Assembly: GCF_003671715.1 (NCBI RefSeq)
Contig: NZ_RAIF01000031.1
Location: 415,770-479,769, forward strand
Direction: 5' to 3'
Length of the DNA: 64,000 bases
Source of the DNA: Streptomyces sp. E2N166
GTDB taxonomy: Bacteria > Actinomycetota > Actinomycetes > Streptomycetales > Streptomycetaceae
The notes beneath the pieces were generated by a model. The model saw only the letters and a program-made list of their open reading frames with translations. It was not told the origin of the DNA and did no database searches. Position numbers and translations under genes: made by a program. Shown piece by piece: positions 58,455 to 64,000 of this stretch; the first letter of the stretch is position 1; each line of letters starts with the position of its first letter.

Positions 58455-60746
58455 ATGTCCCACGTCGGCGTCGGACCGCGCGCGGTGACGCGCTCGGTCG
58501 CCTTCCTCACCGCGGGCGTGCTCGCGGTCCCCGCGCTGGCCGGCTGCAGCTCCGAGGACCCGTCTGGCAAGCCGCTCGCCGACCAGGACATCGCCTCGGC
58601 GAGCCGCGCCCGGATCTCCGACGGCGGCACCCTGCGCTGGGCCGTGGACTCCGTACCGGACACGCTGAACACCTTCCAGTCGGACGCCGACGCCACCGCC
58701 ACCCGCGTCGCGCAGGCCGTGCTGCCCTCGATGTACCGGATGGACGAGACCGGCCGCCCGGTGCGCAATCCCGACTACCTGGAATCGGCCGAGGTCGTCG
58801 AGACCGAGCCCAAGCAGGTCGTCGTCTACAAGCTCAACCAGCAGGCCGTGTGGAGCGACGGCCGGGAGGTCGGCGCCGCCGACTTCGCCGCCCAGTGGCG
58901 CGCCCTGTCCGGCAAGGACAGCGCCTACTGGACCGCGCGCAACGCGGGCTACGACCGCATCGAGAAGATCCAGCGCGGCGCCGGCGACCTGGAGGTCAAG
59001 GTCACCTTCAGCCGGCCCTACGCGGACTGGAAGTCGCTGTTCACGCCGCTGTACCCGAAGGACGTCATGGGCACCCCGGACGCCTTCAACGACGGCGCGC
59101 GGCGCAAGCTCAAGGTCACCGCCGGCCCCTTCGCCGTCAAGGAGGTCGACACCAAGGACGACGAGGTCGTCCTCACCGGCAACCCGCGCTGGTGGGGGGA
59201 GACGGCCAAGCTGGACAAGATCGTGCTGCGCGCCGTACCCCGCGACGAGCGGGTCTCCGAGCTGGTCGCGGGCAAGCTCGACCTGGCCGAGATCGACCCG
59301 GACACCGCCGAGCAGGCCGGCCTGGCCGCCGCCCCCCGGGACGCCGCCACCGGCACCCCGCTCATGGGCCCGGACGGCACCCCGGCCGCGGGTTCGGGCG
59401 GCTCGCCGCGCCCCGGCCCGCAGGGCAGGTCCGCCGCGCAGGCACTGCGCTCGTGGGCGGTCGCCAACGGCTCCGACGAGGAGGCCGCCGAGGAGGAGAT
59501 CCTGGCCCGCGAGGAGCGGCGCGAGGCCCGGGCGAAGCTCGAACGCCGGCAGCGGGCCCTGAGCGGCTTCGAGGTCCGCAAATCACTGGAGCCCGCCTAC
59601 ACCCAGCTCGCCCTGAACGGCGCCGACGGCCCCCTCGCCGACGAACGCGTCCGGCGGGCCGTGGCCCGCGCCCTGGACCGCGAGAAGCTCGCCAAGGCGG
59701 TGCTGGGTCCGCTGGGCCTGCCCGCCGAGCCCGTGGGCAGCCACCTGGCGCTGTCCGGCCAGGCCGCCTACGCCGACGGCAGCGGCGCCCTCGGCGACCA
59801 GAACGCCAAGGAGGCCCGGGCCCTGCTGGCGGACGCCGGGTGGGTGCCCGGCGGGCCCGTGAAGGAGTCCGAGGACGGCGAGAAGGCGGCCGGCGCCAAG
59901 GGCGAGAAGGACAAGGACGACAAGGACGAGAAGAAGTCCGAGGGCGGCGACGACGGGACGTACATCGTCGGCGAGGACGACCAGAGCACGGACGACGAGA
60001 GCACGGACGACACGAACACGGACGACAAGAACACGGACGACAAGGAGAACGGAGAGCAGGGGAAGAAGAAGGAGGGGGAGGACAGCAGCGGCAAGAACAC
60101 CGCGCAGGGCGGCGCCCCCGGCGCCTACGCCCCCAAGGGCACCGCCGCCCCCGCCGGCTCCGCGACGGGCCCGCTCGCCAAGGACGGCAAGGCGCTCACC
60201 CTGCGCTTCGTCCTCCCCTCCGGCCCCGGCGCCGAGGCCCTGCGCACCGTGGCCGACCGCATCTCGGACATGCTGGAGAAGATCGGCATCGGCACCGACA
60301 TCACCAAGGTGCCGGACGAGAGCTACTTCAAGGACCACGTCGCCTCCGGCGAGTACGACCTGGCGCTCTACTCCTGGCCCGCCTCCGCCTTCCCCGCCAC
60401 CGACGCCCGCCCCATCTACGCCAAGCCCGTCCCGGCCGCCGACGGCTCCCTGAACGTCGCGCAGAACTACACCCGGGTCGGCACCGACCAGGTCGACCAG
60501 CTCTTCGACCAGGCCATGGCGACGCTGGACCAGAAGGAGGCCCGGGACCTGCTCCGCAAGGCCGACTCACGGATCTGGGCGGCGGCCGGCTCCATCCCCC
60601 TCTACCAGCGCCCCCAGCTCGTGGCGGCCCGGAAGAACCTGGCCAACGTGGGCGCCTTCGGCTTCGAGACCCCCGTCTACGAGGACATGGGCTTCCTCAA
60701 GAAGGGCGCCCACGGCTCCCGGCCGTCGGCCGCTCCCTCGTCCTGA
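58455..60746 (+). CDS. Family 5 peptide-type ABC transporter binding lipoprotein
   Basis: A 763-residue exported lipoprotein. Signal peptide with lipobox LAGC (about 28-31). The SBP family 5 fold is recognisable: GGTLRWAVDSVPDTLN, VVVYKLNQQAVWSDGREVGAADFA, and a C-terminal YLxRPQL-like region. It is much longer than usual. One insert (about 295-370) is alanine/glutamate-rich and helical; another (about 475-560) is lysine/aspartate-rich, partly from four 15 bp DNA repeats. No permease is adjacent, so the partner transporter is unlinked. Divergent from the Sdh operon. Confidence 0.88.
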   Translation: MSHVGVGPRAVTRSVAFLTAGVLAVPALAGCSSEDPSGKPLADQDIASASRARISDGGTLRWAVDSVPDTLNTFQSDADATATRVAQAVLPSMYRMDETGRPVRNPDYLESAEVVETEPKQVVVYKLNQQAVWSDGREVGAADFAAQWRALSGKDSAYWTARNAGYDRIEKIQRGAGDLEVKVTFSRPYADWKSLFTPLYPKDVMGTPDAFNDGARRKLKVTAGPFAVKEVDTKDDEVVLTGNPRWWGETAKLDKIVLRAVPRDERVSELVAGKLDLAEIDPDTAEQAGLAAAPRDAATGTPLMGPDGTPAAGSGGSPRPGPQGRSAAQALRSWAVANGSDEEAAEEEILAREERREARAKLERRQRALSGFEVRKSLEPAYTQLALNGADGPLADERVRRAVARALDREKLAKAVLGPLGLPAEPVGSHLALSGQAAYADGSGALGDQNAKEARALLADAGWVPGGPVKESEDGEKAAGAKGEKDKDDKDEKKSEGGDDGTYIVGEDDQSTDDESTDDTNTDDKNTDDKENGEQGKKKEGEDSSGKNTAQGGAPGAYAPKGTAAPAGSATGPLAKDGKALTLRFVLPSGPGAEALRTVADRISDMLEKIGIGTDITKVPDESYFKDHVASGEYDLALYSWPASAFPATDARPIYAKPVPAADGSLNVAQNYTRVGTDQVDQLFDQAMATLDQKEARDLLRKADSRIWAAAGSIPLYQRPQLVAARKNLANVGAFGFETPVYEDMGFLKKGAHGSRPSAAPSS
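59985..60044 (+). repeat. Four tandem 15 bp units in coding sequence
   Basis: Units of type A-A/G-CACGGACGAC followed by GAG, ACG or AAG encode S/N-T-D-D-x repeats within the charged insert of the lipoprotein. Recent slippage in an otherwise coding stretch. Confidence 0.85.
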
Positions 60747-60901: not shown

Positions 60902-62809
60902 ATGGCCACGCGCCACGACATCCGCAACGTCGCCATCGTCGCCCACGTCGACCACGGCAAGACCACCATCGTCGACGGAATGCTGAAGCAGGCCGGCGCC
61001 TTCGCCGCGCACCAGCTCGAAGGCGTCGACGACCGCATGATGGACTCGAACGACCTGGAGCGTGAGAAGGGCATCACGATCCTCGCCAAGAACACGGCGG
61101 TGAAGTACCACCCGAAGGATGGCGGCGACGTCATCACCATCAACATCATCGACACCCCCGGCCACGCCGACTTCGGCGGTGAGGTCGAGCGCGGTCTGTC
61201 GATGGTCGACGGCGTCGTCCTGCTCGTGGACGCCTCCGAGGGTCCGCTGCCGCAGACCCGCTTCGTGCTGCGCAAGGCGCTCAGCCAGCGGCTGCCGATC
61301 ATCCTCTGCATCAACAAGACGGACCGCCCGGACGCCCGGATCGACGAGGTCGTCAACGAGACGTACGACCTCTTCCTCGACCTGGACGCCGACGAGGAGC
61401 AGATCGAGTTCCCGATCGTCTACGCGTGTGGCCGCGACGGCGTCGCCTCCCTCACCAAGCCCGACGACGGCACGGTCCCGTCCGACTCCACCAGCCTGGA
61501 GCCGTTCTTCTCGACGATCCTGGACTACATCCCGGCCCCGACCTACGACGAGGACGCCCCGCTCCAGGCGCACGTGACCAACCTGGACGCGGACAACTTC
61601 CTCGGCCGTATCGCCCTGCTGCGCGTCCACCAGGGCGAGCTGAAGAAGGGCCAGACGGTCGCCTGGATGAAGCGCGACGGGTCCGTGCAGAACGTGCGGA
61701 TCTCCGAGCTGATGATGACCGAGGCGCTCACCCGCAAGCCCGCCGAGAAGGCCGCGCCCGGTGACATCTGCGCCGTCGCCGGTATCCCGGACATCATGAT
61801 CGGCGAGACCCTGGCCGACCAGGAGAACCCGGTCCCGCTGCCGCTGATCACGGTGGACGAGCCCGCGATCTCCATGACCATCGGCACCAACACCTCGCCG
61901 CTGGTCGGCCGCGGTGCCACCGGCAAGGGCGCGGACAACAAGGCGGCCGTCAAGGACCGCAAGGTCACCGCCCGCCAGGTCAAGGACCGCCTGGACCGTG
62001 AGCTGATCGGCAACGTCTCGCTCCGTGTCCTGGACACCGAGCGCCCGGACGCCTGGGAGGTGCAGGGCCGCGGTGAGCTGGCGCTGGCCATCCTGGTCGA
62101 GCAGATGCGCCGTGAGGGCTTCGAGCTGACCATCGGCAAGCCGCAGGTCGTCACCAAGGACGTCGAGGGCAAGACGTACGAGCCCGTCGAGCGCATGACG
62201 ATCGACGTGCCCGAGGAGCACATGGGCGCGGTCACGCAGCTCATGGGCGTGCGCAAGGGCCGGATGGACAACATGTCCAACCACGGCTCCGGCTGGGTCC
62301 GCATGGAGTTCGTGGTCCCCTCCCGCGGTCTGATCGGCTTCCGCACGGAGTTCCTGACCCAGACCCGCGGCACCGGCATCGCGCACTCCATCCACGAGGG
62401 CCACGAGCCCTGGTTCGGCAACCTCACGACCCGTAACAACGGCTCGCTGGTCGCCGACCGCTCCGGTGCCGTCACCGCGTTCGCGATGACGAACCTCCAG
62501 GAGCGCGGCGTGCTCTTCACGGAGCCCGGCACCGAGGTGTACGAGGGCATGATCGTCGGCGAGAACTCGCGCGCCGACGACATGGACGTGAACATCACCA
62601 AGGAGAAGAAGCTCACCAACATGCGGTCGTCCTCGGCCGACTCGTTCGAGGCGATCGTCCCGCCGCGCAAGCTCTCGCTGGAGCAGTCGCTGGAGTTCTG
62701 CCGCGACGACGAGTGCGTCGAGGTGACCCCGGAGGCCGTTCGCATCCGCAAGGTCAACCTGGATGCCCGCGAGCGCGCCCGCGCCGCGAGCCGCGCCAAG
62801 CACAACTGA
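60902..62809 (+). CDS. typA: Ribosome-associated GTPase TypA/BipA
   Basis: A 635-residue translational GTPase. G1 is AHVDHGKTT (14-22), G3 is DTPGHADF, and G4 is NKTDRPDAR. Domain II and the EF-G-like domain V follow, and the C-terminal specific domain has the MGVRKGRMDNMSNHGSGW and SRGLIGFRTEFL segments. The ATG at 60902 gives the standard start. BipA helps 50S assembly and translation under stress. A strong terminator follows. Confidence 0.97.
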   Translation: MATRHDIRNVAIVAHVDHGKTTIVDGMLKQAGAFAAHQLEGVDDRMMDSNDLEREKGITILAKNTAVKYHPKDGGDVITINIIDTPGHADFGGEVERGLSMVDGVVLLVDASEGPLPQTRFVLRKALSQRLPIILCINKTDRPDARIDEVVNETYDLFLDLDADEEQIEFPIVYACGRDGVASLTKPDDGTVPSDSTSLEPFFSTILDYIPAPTYDEDAPLQAHVTNLDADNFLGRIALLRVHQGELKKGQTVAWMKRDGSVQNVRISELMMTEALTRKPAEKAAPGDICAVAGIPDIMIGETLADQENPVPLPLITVDEPAISMTIGTNTSPLVGRGATGKGADNKAAVKDRKVTARQVKDRLDRELIGNVSLRVLDTERPDAWEVQGRGELALAILVEQMRREGFELTIGKPQVVTKDVEGKTYEPVERMTIDVPEEHMGAVTQLMGVRKGRMDNMSNHGSGWVRMEFVVPSRGLIGFRTEFLTQTRGTGIAHSIHEGHEPWFGNLTTRNNGSLVADRSGAVTAFAMTNLQERGVLFTEPGTEVYEGMIVGENSRADDMDVNITKEKKLTNMRSSSADSFEAIVPPRKLSLEQSLEFCRDDECVEVTPEAVRIRKVNLDARERARAASRAKHN

Positions 62810-62845
62810 TCCACCCGCCGCCGGCGCGCGGTCGGCACGCGGCGG

Positions 62846-62886
62846 AGCCCGGGTGCCCCCATCATGGGGGCACCCGGGCTTTTTTC
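62846..62886 (+). terminator. Rho-independent terminator after typA
   Basis: Positions 62846-62860 and 62866-62880 form a perfect 15 bp stem with an ATCAT loop, followed by six T residues. A textbook intrinsic terminator. Confidence 0.93.
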
Positions 62887-63166
62887 AACCGGTTTTCCGG
62901 GGCCCCGGCACCCTTCCGGCACCCTTCCGGCGGCCCTCGGTGTCCGAAACACGGAGATCGACGCCCGATAGCCATGTAACAAGTCCGTTTCGCGGCCTTC
63001 TCGTCCCGAACAGTTTGTCCAGATTTTGGAAGATCTCCCTGTCAGCTGTGACTGAATTGAGATTTAAAGACGGTGGTCGGTCCTTCTGGTCATGGCAGAT
63101 AGTTAGCCGCGTAGCGCTCGGGTCAATGGGTCTCGCGCTGTGGGGACAGCGCCGACTCACGAGCAC
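62887..63166. other. A+T-richer intergenic stretch after typA
   Basis: About 280 bp without a gene. The part at 63015-63080 is markedly A+T-rich for this genome and is probably the promoter for the leader and permease. Confidence 0.4.
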
Positions 63167-63219
63167 CAGGGGGTGTCTGTCCTTCCGTCAGGGGTGTCGG
63201 AAGGCAGATATGTGCCCCC
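63167..63219 (+). promoter_or_regulatory. Structured leader hairpin
   Basis: AGGGGG (63167-63172) pairs with CCCCCT (63214-63219), TCTG (63175-63178) with CAGA (63204-63207), and CCTTCCG (63180-63186) with CGGAAGG (63197-63203). The compound hairpin ends about 25 bp before the ribosome binding site of the next small frame. A possible regulatory leader. Confidence 0.5.
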
Positions 63220-63258
63220 TCCTGTCGGTGAACACGTGGAGTCATGAGGAGGAGCCCC

Positions 63259-63339
63259 ATGCGCGGTGTCACGAACACCAAGTGGGTCACACGGTCCGTC
63301 GCCCCCAACTTCGCCCCGTCGGACGGCGATCGACTCTGA
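63259..63339 (+). CDS. 26-residue reading frame with strong ribosome binding site
   Basis: MRGVTNTKWVTRSVAPNF and eight more residues, ending DRL-stop. An AGGAGGAG site precedes the ATG. The opening MRG-x-T-x-x-KW resembles, by memory, the signal-peptide start of BldKB-like oligopeptide-binding lipoproteins, which are often encoded beside OppC-type permeases. It is either a truncated remnant of such a gene or a leader peptide. Too short for the usual gene callers. Confidence 0.4.
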   Translation: MRGVTNTKWVTRSVAPNFAPSDGDRL

Positions 63340-63507
63340 GGAGCGGGTCGGCCGCTGACGTCCGGGCATCCGGCTACGCGCGTCCGGCTGCGGGTTTCCC
63401 GCATTCCACGGGACCACTCGACGCTTCTTCATGATCCGTTCCGCGATCGCGCACACCCTGCGCCGTTCGTCGGTTCGGCACACCCACACCTGTGAAATGG
63501 GCGAACT

Positions 63508-64000
63508 GTGACAAGTCCAATCGACATCGAGGGCAGCGGAACGTCGGCCGCCGCCGACGACGCGCCGGATCGCGTCAAGGCCGTGGAGACGAAGAGCCAC
63601 GAAGGCCGGTCTCCCGGGCAGCTGATGTGGCTGCGCTTCAAGCGTGACCGGACCGGCGTCGTCTCCGCGTGCGTGGTGATTCTCTACTTCCTCGTATCGG
63701 CGCTGGCGCCGCTCATCGCCAAGCTGTACGGGAAGGATCCGTACACCCTGTACGCCCAGGAACCGGAGTACCCCTTCCTGCTGGACGACTTCGCCATGCC
63801 GACCGGTTCCTTCGGGGGCATGTCCGGTGACTTCTGGTTCGGTGTCGAGCCCAAGCTGGGGCGCGACGTGTTCACCATGCTGCTGTACGGCATGCGAACC
63901 TCGCTGTACATGGCCGTGGTCGTCACGCTGCTCTGTGTCGTCACCGGCGTGATCATCGGGATGGTCAGCGGCTTCTTCGGTGGCCGGGTCGACTACTGGC
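63508..64000 (+). CDS. OppC/DppC-type ABC permease, 5' part
   Basis: The frame opens at GTG 63508 and runs off the window with no stop, giving 164 residues. A polar cytoplasmic start ends in PGQLMWLRFKRDRTG. The first membrane helix (VVSACVVILYFLVSALAPLIA) follows, then an extended periplasmic loop with FWFGVEPKLGRDVFTMLLYGMRTSL, the signature before the second helix in OppC family permeases, then VVVTLLCVVTGVIIGMVSGFFGG. Probably the first gene of a peptide importer, possibly bldK-related by synteny. The ribosome binding site is weak. Confidence 0.85.
   Translation, partial: MTSPIDIEGSGTSAAADDAPDRVKAVETKSHEGRSPGQLMWLRFKRDRTGVVSACVVILYFLVSALAPLIAKLYGKDPYTLYAQEPEYPFLLDDFAMPTGSFGGMSGDFWFGVEPKLGRDVFTMLLYGMRTSLYMAVVVTLLCVVTGVIIGMVSGFFGGRVDYW

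What the first reader, a model, noticed from the sequence alone, without database searches (positions are those of the whole stretch)
63167..63507. Structured leader and 26-codon frame before an OppC-type permease
A compound hairpin, then a strong AGGAGGAG site and a 26-residue frame starting MRGVTNTKW, lie in 340 bp before the permease. It may be a leader peptide or the stub of a deleted BldKB-like binding-protein gene. If the latter, the transporter has lost its usual receptor here.
Basis: partly seen in the sequence, partly recalled or inferred. Interest (0 to 1): 0.5.

Follow-up and report, generated by a model that had tools for sequence, protein, structure and literature searches.

The report
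Relic start of a displaced transporter
In front of a Streptomyces peptide transporter lies the leftover beginning of another transporter's receptor gene, still attached to its original control region and folded leader RNA, which suggests that whole transporters have been swapped behind one resident control region.

Summary
A structured leader (63116-63286, not only from 63167), a strong ribosome site (63247-63254) and a 26-codon frame (63259-63339) precede an OppC-type permease (GTG 63508). The frame is the relic 5' end of a binding-protein gene (SBP1, starting MRGAKSAKWV). In other Streptomyces the same leader, at the same place behind typA, is followed by an intact SBP1-OppB-OppC-OppD-OppF operon. 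Here that operon is gone, and a bldK-type operon (OppC-receptor-OppB-two ATPases, 24-57% identical) stands in its place. The transporter has not lost its receptor: one is encoded at 64645-66456, just past the window. The relic is not kept as a peptide (pN/pS 0.9-1.65, against 0.02 in intact SBP1). The leader RNA shows covariation, is not in Rfam, occurs once in the genome, and was found in 96 of 147 sampled genomes of the order, in one genus. Leader and typA agree with each other but not with the permease, so operon bodies were probably exchanged behind a resident leader more than once. A published S. coelicolor primer matches this leader in a relative, so classical bldK probably has it too. 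What the leader does is not known.

The parts
60902..62809 (+). typA/bipA-like GTPase gene; the constant left flank of the locus
   Evidence: ORF (MATRHDIRNVAIVAHVDHGKTT...; start placed by reading). tblastn finds it upstream of the leader in 29 of 30 leader loci read. The name typA is recalled, not from a family search.
62848..62885 (+). terminator-like inverted repeat with T-run behind typA
   Evidence: sequence, coordinates
63096..63108 (+). conserved promoter-like block (CAGATAGTTAGCC; ATAGTT perhaps the -10)
   Evidence: conserved in the alignment of 38 leaders; promoter role inferred
63116..63164 (+). leader RNA domain I, three stacked helices GCUCG/CGAGC, UGGGUC/GACUCA, GCGC/GCGC
   Evidence: A2 pair counts, helices 1-3: 100, 96.9 and 100% of cells paired; two-sided changes at 0, 1 and 2 pairs
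   Evidence: MFE; inner hairpin 91.1% of cells paired, 3 pairs with two-sided changes. The outer stem pairs poorly in the alignment.
63247..63254 (+). Shine-Dalgarno site AGGAGGAG of the relic gene
   Evidence: sequence; near-invariant in leaders
63256..63286 (+). start-codon hairpin CCCAU-GCGC-GGUGU-loop-ACACC-AA-GUGGG
   Evidence: MFE of the intact leader L108, pair counts; conserved, but in stubs alone not beyond column shuffles. The window's own MFE forms only its inner stem.
63259..63339 (+). 26-codon frame = relic 5' end of the SBP1 binding-protein gene
   Evidence: 28/36 nt to intact SBP1 starts against at most 20/36 in 134 controls; same syntenic place in relatives
63431..63511 (+). 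second small ORF whose TGA overlaps the permease start (GTGA); possible translational coupling; no SD seen
   Evidence: coding not shown
63508..64000 (+). BldKA-like OppC permease (continues to 64542 in the genome), first gene of the replacing operon
   Evidence: Pfam BPD_transp_1 + OppC_N; full gene L005:3278-4312

Best explanation
The 26-codon frame is the relic start of the receptor gene (SBP1) of an older oligopeptide transporter operon that once followed typA. That operon (SBP1-OppB-OppC-OppD-OppF) was displaced by a bldK-type operon (OppC-receptor-OppB-ATPase-ATPase). The old upstream region, the folded leader RNA, the SD and roughly the first 12 codons stayed. Shown: homology, synteny, mutual exclusion of the two operon types in the genomes sampled, loss of peptide constraint, RNA covariation, and discordance of leader and typA with the permease. 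Inferred: direction of replacement, the promoter, and that the retained promoter and leader now drive the bldK-type operon. Likely working: the leader RNA sets expression of whichever transporter stands behind it. The relic start persists because it is the last hairpin and ribosome site of that leader, not because its peptide matters. In some lineages the relic frame runs exactly into the permease start (4-nt overlap) and could couple translation.
For: Own genome: the permease is followed by receptor, OppB and two ATPases; no SBP1 at E <= 1e-170. Intact version: 20 of 20 upstream regions fetched carry the same leader and then an open MRGA[K/T]SAKW gene. 13 of 14 mapped regions read SBP1-B-C-D-F (typA visible in 12 of the 13); the 14th, fetched as such, is the stub type. 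Leader model R1: one copy in the window genome; one each in 96 of 147 genomes of the order, in 1 of 5 genera. Of the 30 of those 96 loci read (the best-scoring), 24 continue into a binding-protein gene and 6 into the permease type; typA lies upstream in 29. SBP1 is in 46 of 101 genomes and in 0 of the 19 with leader (one only a remnant) plus permease (Fisher p 2.7e-6). Stub codons 2-17 have pN/pS 0.91-1.65, a permease block of the same loci 0.10-0.14, intact SBP1 codons 2-10 0.02. Structure: 95.1% of cells paired against 92.3 shuffled, 54 two-sided changes against 18.1, 0 of 500 shuffles as high. L006 and L030: leader 0.90, typA 0.93, permease 0.62; L006 and L009: 0.67, 0.88, 0.82. In L175 and L207 the relic joins a GGGGGAAG ribosome region like that of bldKA in loci without the leader.
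Against: No expression data. The stub-only test of the start-codon hairpin does not exceed shuffles (147 of 160 cells; 414 of 2000 shuffles as high), so retention for RNA reasons is not proven there. Two of the five covariation measures are weak (56 and 26 of 500 shuffles as high), related sequences can beat shuffles without structure, and A2 leaves out 11 of the 59 leaders, six of them a group that aligns poorly in the middle. Codon conservation of SBP1 codons 2-10 is not above the rest of the gene (0.788 against 0.799). If the RNA is constrained, pN/pS of the stub is biased upward. The outer stem of domain II pairs poorly. No convincing remnant of the old operon's far end in 21 loci. 14 named loci have bldKA directly behind typA without a detectable leader, and 9 of 50 leader loci have lost the stub start or part of the leader, so neither is indispensable. 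Of the 41 genomes, six have neither the close permease nor a second binding protein of this kind. The permease tree puts stub loci in several clades, so the number of replacements is open.
Confidence: 0.9

Rival explanations
1. A regulatory leader peptide (attenuator or translational switch) whose translation controls the permease operon.
For: SD and ATG kept in 41 of 110 upstream regions, that is 41 of the 50 with a leader (the two locus sets overlap in species). In L175, L177, L207 and L027 the 23-codon frame ends on a 4-nt overlap with the permease start, and in L164 an 80-codon frame does so.
Against: pN/pS 0.91-1.65; frame 17 to 80 codons; start lost in L016, L017, L155, L156, L167, L187, L203 and L213. 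In the window the frame stops 168 nt before the permease.
Confidence: 0.15
2. Pure neutral relic: upstream region retained, while leader structure and stub are decaying without function.
For: 9 of 50 leader loci have lost the stub start or part of the leader; loci without the leader keep the operon; the start-codon hairpin in stubs does not covary beyond shuffles.
Against: Leader covariation beyond shuffles and slides in three of five measures; leader in 96 of 147 genomes, while in most stubs the sequence after about codon 12 is no longer like SBP1.
Confidence: 0.25
3. The reverse direction: the leader ORF is old and SBP1 took its start codons from it.
For: Both states occur in one genus.
Against: The paralogue SBP3 has the same kind of N-terminus (for example MRGATHAKWAACAAAVALVATACGG, L042) and no such leader was seen before it (R1 finds one copy in the window genome); the L164 stub extends through the signal peptide.
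Confidence: 0.04
4. Chance similarity: an unrelated short ORF that happens to start MRG.
For: Short match; MR starts are common in signal peptides (recalled).
Against: 28/36 nt against at most 20/36 in 134 controls; same leader over about 170 nt at the same locus.
Confidence: 0.01

Closest known systems
bldKABCDE oligopeptide permease operon of Streptomyces coelicolor (SCO5112-5116)
   Same: Same gene order (permease, lipoprotein, permease, two ATPases) and similar lengths: 344/603/351/353/371 aa here against 343/600/325/353/381 (PMC10090380 table, passage; roles in PMC11303876, passages). A published primer for the region upstream of SCO5113 ends in 16 nt found exactly in the leader of relative L024 (the second hit, L070, is the same genome).
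   Different: The S. coelicolor sequence itself was not available here. No description of the leader, relic or displacement appeared in the passages read.
BldK of Streptomyces griseus (Akanuma et al. 2011; cited in PMC9640686, not read)
   Same: PMC9640686 (passage) calls it a functional orthologue with only 20-59% similarity to S. coelicolor BldK; the SBP1-type operon is 24.4-57.2% identical to the window operon.
   Different: That S. griseus has the SBP1 type at this locus is my inference; its genome was not identified here.
Gene (operon) displacement in situ
   Same: Non-orthologous genes of like function replace residents at one locus (concept recalled; 41 papers hold the phrase with 'operon', 8 listed, none read).
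   Different: Here a whole five-gene operon is replaced behind a retained upstream region, leader RNA and first codons.
Structured 5' leaders with start-codon hairpins (riboswitch-like or RNase III-processed; recalled classes)
   Same: Covarying leader, SD and start codon in or beside hairpins. SCO5112 mRNA is among those co-precipitated with RNase III (enrichment 1.4) and has an antisense RNA (PMC5775266, section 12 read).
   Different: No Rfam family matches at gathering score; hits within the leader have E about 1 or worse. Ligand or regulator unknown.

Membership tests
BldK-type oligopeptide ABC importer (the replacing operon) | Five genes in the order permease, SBP lipoprotein, permease, ATPase, ATPase | tested here: met
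   OppC_N/BPD_transp_1, SBP_bac_5, BPD_transp_1, ABC_tran + oligo_HPY twice
BldK-type oligopeptide ABC importer (the replacing operon) | Direct sequence orthology to S. coelicolor BldKA-E | tested here: inconclusive
BldK-type oligopeptide ABC importer (the replacing operon) | Needed for aerial mycelium / imports the signal peptide | not testable with these tools
   needs mutants
Relic of a binding-protein gene | Homology to an intact gene start at the same syntenic position | tested here: met
Relic of a binding-protein gene | Loss of coding constraint | tested here: met
   pN/pS 0.91-1.65 against 0.02 in intact SBP1 codons 2-10 and 0.10-0.14 in a permease block
   Receptor intact at 64645-66456; the relic matches SBP1, which is 24.4% identical to it
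Leader peptide attenuator | Conserved peptide | tested here: not met
Leader peptide attenuator | The frame is translated | not testable with these tools
   needs ribosome profiling
Known RNA family (Rfam 15) | Match at gathering score | tested here: not met
Conserved cis-regulatory leader RNA | Covariation beyond shuffled and slid controls | tested here: met
   score 0.158 against 0.105 shuffled (0 of 500) and at most 0.048 slid; two of five measures weaker (56 and 26 of 500)
Conserved cis-regulatory leader RNA | Changes expression of the downstream operon | not testable with these tools
   needs reporter fusions

The most novel reading that the evidence does not exclude
Behind typA in Streptomyces lies a resident control cassette: a promoter plus a new leader RNA that reaches into the first codons. 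Behind it, different peptide importers are exchanged as units, so the lineage keeps its developmental control but changes which signal peptide it imports. The 'bldK' transporters of different model species would then be non-orthologous occupants of one slot, and the relic start codons are kept because they are part of the leader RNA switch.
Probability: 0.35. Interest if true: 0.78.

Novelty: new variant of a known kind. Interest (0 to 1): 0.6.

Why it matters
BldK imports an extracellular signal that starts aerial growth, yet BldK proteins of S. coelicolor and S. griseus are only 20-59% similar, BldKA-C are conserved in few strains, and it has been suggested that strains use different signal peptides (PMC9640686, passage). 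A slot in which importers are swapped behind one resident promoter and leader would explain this. It predicts that developmental control is inherited with the leader while signal specificity travels with the operon. It also marks a covarying leader RNA in front of what is probably a classical developmental operon, which can be tested by reporter fusions.

Tried and rejected
Rfam search of 62780-63700: only sub-threshold hits, the best on the typA terminator. First reading of the fetched loci ignored that loci from the genome search are in contig orientation, so minus-strand loci looked as if they had no leader; redone. First idea, a duplication of the start of the neighbouring binding protein SBP3 (about 13 kb downstream, 7 kb in G034), seemed good because a start pattern hit only these two places in the window genome; in 17 genomes it hit a few other places too. 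It was replaced when SBP1 was found behind the same leader; SBP1 and SBP3 are paralogues (43.4%). Expected excess synonymous conservation in SBP1 codons 2-10: not found (0.788 against 0.799). Covariation of the start-codon hairpin in stubs alone: not beyond shuffles. Remnants of the old operon's last genes before SBP3: none convincing in 21 loci. The permease pN/pS control was misaligned and useless; replaced by an anchored block (17 of 17, 7 of 8 and 7 of 7 loci). The Pfam query of the stub, and the first stub comparison, used 63260, one base out of frame; the comparison was redone and the stub sent to NCBIfam (0 families); Pfam was not repeated for it. Literature: no paper describing a bldK leader RNA, relic start or operon swap was seen (12 of 12 listed; 20 of 144; 14 of 14; 5 of 5; 10 of 18), from listings and the passages read; one search was too broad to count (8 of 8,346). 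The original bldK papers did not appear in these listings.

Full report
WHAT IS THERE. The window ends inside the first gene of an operon. Between the typA-like gene (ends 62809, followed by a terminator-like repeat 62848-62885) and the permease (GTG 63508) lie a promoter-like block, a folded leader from 63116, an SD AGGAGGAG (63247-63254) and the 26-codon frame 63259-63339. Reading on in the genome (L005) shows OppC-type permease (63508-64542), binding lipoprotein (64645-66456), OppB permease (66482-67537) and two ATPases (67548-69737). Then come a divergent paralogous cluster on the other strand and a third, SBP-first cluster (its receptor, SBP3, from about 76.5 kb). Pfam confirms the operon's five parts. 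The receptor is therefore not missing.

WHAT THE FRAME IS. All of 101 genomes of the genus have some OppC homologue. Of the 30 best loci, 18 carry a recognisable leader with SD, 19 by HMM including one remnant. I took 41 genomes whose best permease match was weak. In these, 38 of 41 have SBP3, and 35 of 41 have a binding protein 38-45% identical to SBP3. The 20 upstream regions I fetched for the latter (5.6-12.6 kb before SBP3) all carry the same leader, followed without a break by an open lipoprotein gene starting MRGA[K/T]SAKWV. I call it SBP1. Gene maps of 14 regions: 13 read SBP1-OppB-OppC-OppD-OppF with SBP3 as the next recognised receptor (typA visible upstream in 12; L130 has another cluster before SBP3), and the 14th, G034, is the window type. 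The 26-codon frame stands exactly where SBP1 starts. Its first 36 nt match intact SBP1 starts at 28/36; 134 other SD-preceded ATGs of the window reach at most 20/36. Over 39 distinct stubs (41 found in 110 upstream regions) mean identity to SBP1 is 8.6-11.6 of 12 in codons 1-4 and in most has fallen to 2-5 of 12 after about codon 12. In L164 it runs through the signal peptide (MRGATSAGWVEWAAIAAPTATAPG against MRGATSAKWVAGAAIIALAATACG), and in L175, L177, L207 and L027 to about codon 16.

DISPLACEMENT. The two operons are different transporters: 24.4% (receptor), 35.9 and 33.2% (permeases), 52.2 and 57.2% (ATPases) identity. SBP1 is found in 46 of 101 genomes at E <= 1e-170 and in none of the 19 with leader plus this permease type, against 46 of the 82 others (Fisher p 2.7e-6). 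In loci where bldKA lacks the leader, its own upstream region is different and has a ribosome region such as CCGGGGGAAGAAC. In L175 and L207 a similar GGGGGAAG region is joined directly to about 16 codons of SBP1, so the junction is visible; L177 and L027 are alike but with GGGGGTCG. In these four, and in L164 with an 80-codon frame, the relic frame ends on the NTGA overlapping the permease start. Elsewhere extra sequence separates them, 168 nt in the window. No convincing remnant of the far end of the old operon was found in 21 loci.

REPEATED EXCHANGE. Permease phylogeny (107 rows) scatters stub loci over several clades (12 changes of the stub label, 9 forced by well supported branches; changes may be losses). 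Pairs disagree sharply: L006 and L030 have leader 0.90, typA 0.93, permease 0.62; L006 and L009 have 0.67, 0.88 and 0.82 (nine loci compared, typA available for eight, over 222 nt). Leader and typA thus travel together and the operon body does not. I read this as repeated exchange of operon bodies behind a resident leader. Recombination within the genus is the simplest route, but donors were not traced.

IS IT A LEADER PEPTIDE? Stub codons 2-17 have pN/pS 0.91 (17 sequences), 1.65 (8) and 1.6 (7). Intact SBP1 gives 0.27 over codons 2-17 and 0.02 over codons 2-10, and a 16-codon permease block of the stub loci 0.10-0.14. A constrained RNA would raise the stub values, so they argue against peptide constraint without proving neutrality. 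Lengths run from 17 to 80 codons, and nine of 50 leader loci lost the start or part of the leader. So the peptide is not conserved. Coupling of translation in some species remains possible.

THE LEADER RNA. Alignment A2 (19 intact and 29 stub leaders) supports domain I (63116-63164), an inner hairpin (63182-63203) and a hairpin holding the start codon (63256-63286). The 32 pairs: 95.1% of cells paired (92.3 shuffled), 54 two-sided changes (18.1), score 0.158 (0.105), none of 500 shuffles as high for these three measures; slid versions reach at most 0.048. The two other measures are weaker (56 and 26 of 500), and the structure was drawn from one of the sequences. RNAalifold on its own found domain I and the inner hairpin but another pairing near the start codon. 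The start-codon hairpin in stubs alone is conserved but not beyond shuffles, and SBP1's first codons are not unusually conserved synonymously. The claim that the relic is retained as RNA is therefore plausible, not shown. Model R1 (domain I plus inner hairpin) finds one copy in the window genome and one each in 96 of 147 genomes of the order, in 1 of 5 genera. How many of the 147 lie outside the genus is not shown, and strict filters cost matches: G067, which has a leader by HMM, is a miss. Of 30 such loci read, the best-scoring, 24 continue into a binding-protein gene and 6 into the permease type. Rfam has no family for it.

KNOWN CONTEXT. S. coelicolor bldK has the order permease-receptor-permease-ATPase-ATPase, SCO5112-5116, with BldKA of 343 and BldKB of 600 residues (PMC10090380 and PMC11303876, passages). 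A primer for a fragment starting 1,480 nt before SCO5113 ends in 16 nt that occur exactly in the leader of L024, so the classical operon probably has this leader. PMC9640686 (passage) reports that the S. griseus functional orthologue is only 20-59% similar, that BldKA-C are conserved in 5-10% of strains, and suggests that strains may use different signal peptides; 20-59% is close to the 24-57% between the two operon types here. That S. griseus carries the SBP1 type is inference. In S. venezuelae a bldK-like cluster, sven_4759-63, was studied by mutating sven_4759 (PMC6401478, section 9 part 1); its numbering next to sven_4765-69 fits the SBP1-then-SBP3 order, unverified. bldKA expression in S. 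coelicolor falls in an mtrA mutant, though MtrA did not shift a 265-bp upstream probe (PMC5650626, passages). SCO5112 mRNA is listed as co-precipitated with RNase III (enrichment 1.4) and has an antisense RNA (PMC5775266, section 12). None of these passages mentions the leader structure, relic or displacement.

VERDICT. The finding is a well supported case of operon displacement behind a retained upstream region and leader RNA at what is probably the bldK locus.

Noticed in passing
58455-60746 (+): A further lipoprotein gene of peptide-binding look (by eye, no family search) just upstream of typA, with an unusual long Lys/Glu/Asp-rich low-complexity insert in its middle.
   Followed up: no
L005:9650-15754 (window coordinates 69880-75984, - strand): A divergent paralogous cluster of the same type, 57-80% identical in permeases and ATPases (receptor 41%), lies between the operon and the third cluster; absent in G034.
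   Followed up: partly
63431-63511 (+): A second 26-residue ORF (MIRSAIAHTLRRSSVRHTHTCEMGEL) ends on the GTGA overlapping the permease start; similar last residues (CETDE, CEMGE, CEMDE) recur in many leader loci. The permease has no clear SD.
   Followed up: partly
L016, L017, L155, L156, L167, L187, L203, L213, L035: Loci that keep the leader or part of it but have lost the SBP1 start or, in L035, the hairpins: a natural deletion series of the element.
   Followed up: partly
L143-L145, L151, L160-L163, L169; L212: bldKA directly behind typA but with a different upstream region (such as CCCCCGGGGGAAGAACACACATG) instead of the leader: another state of the locus. L212 keeps only a fragment (GGTGAACACGTGGAGTCA) of the leader.
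   Followed up: partly
L205 and L214: typA lies about 7.5 kb upstream of the permease, so another cluster may stand between them; possible intermediate of the exchange.
   Followed up: no
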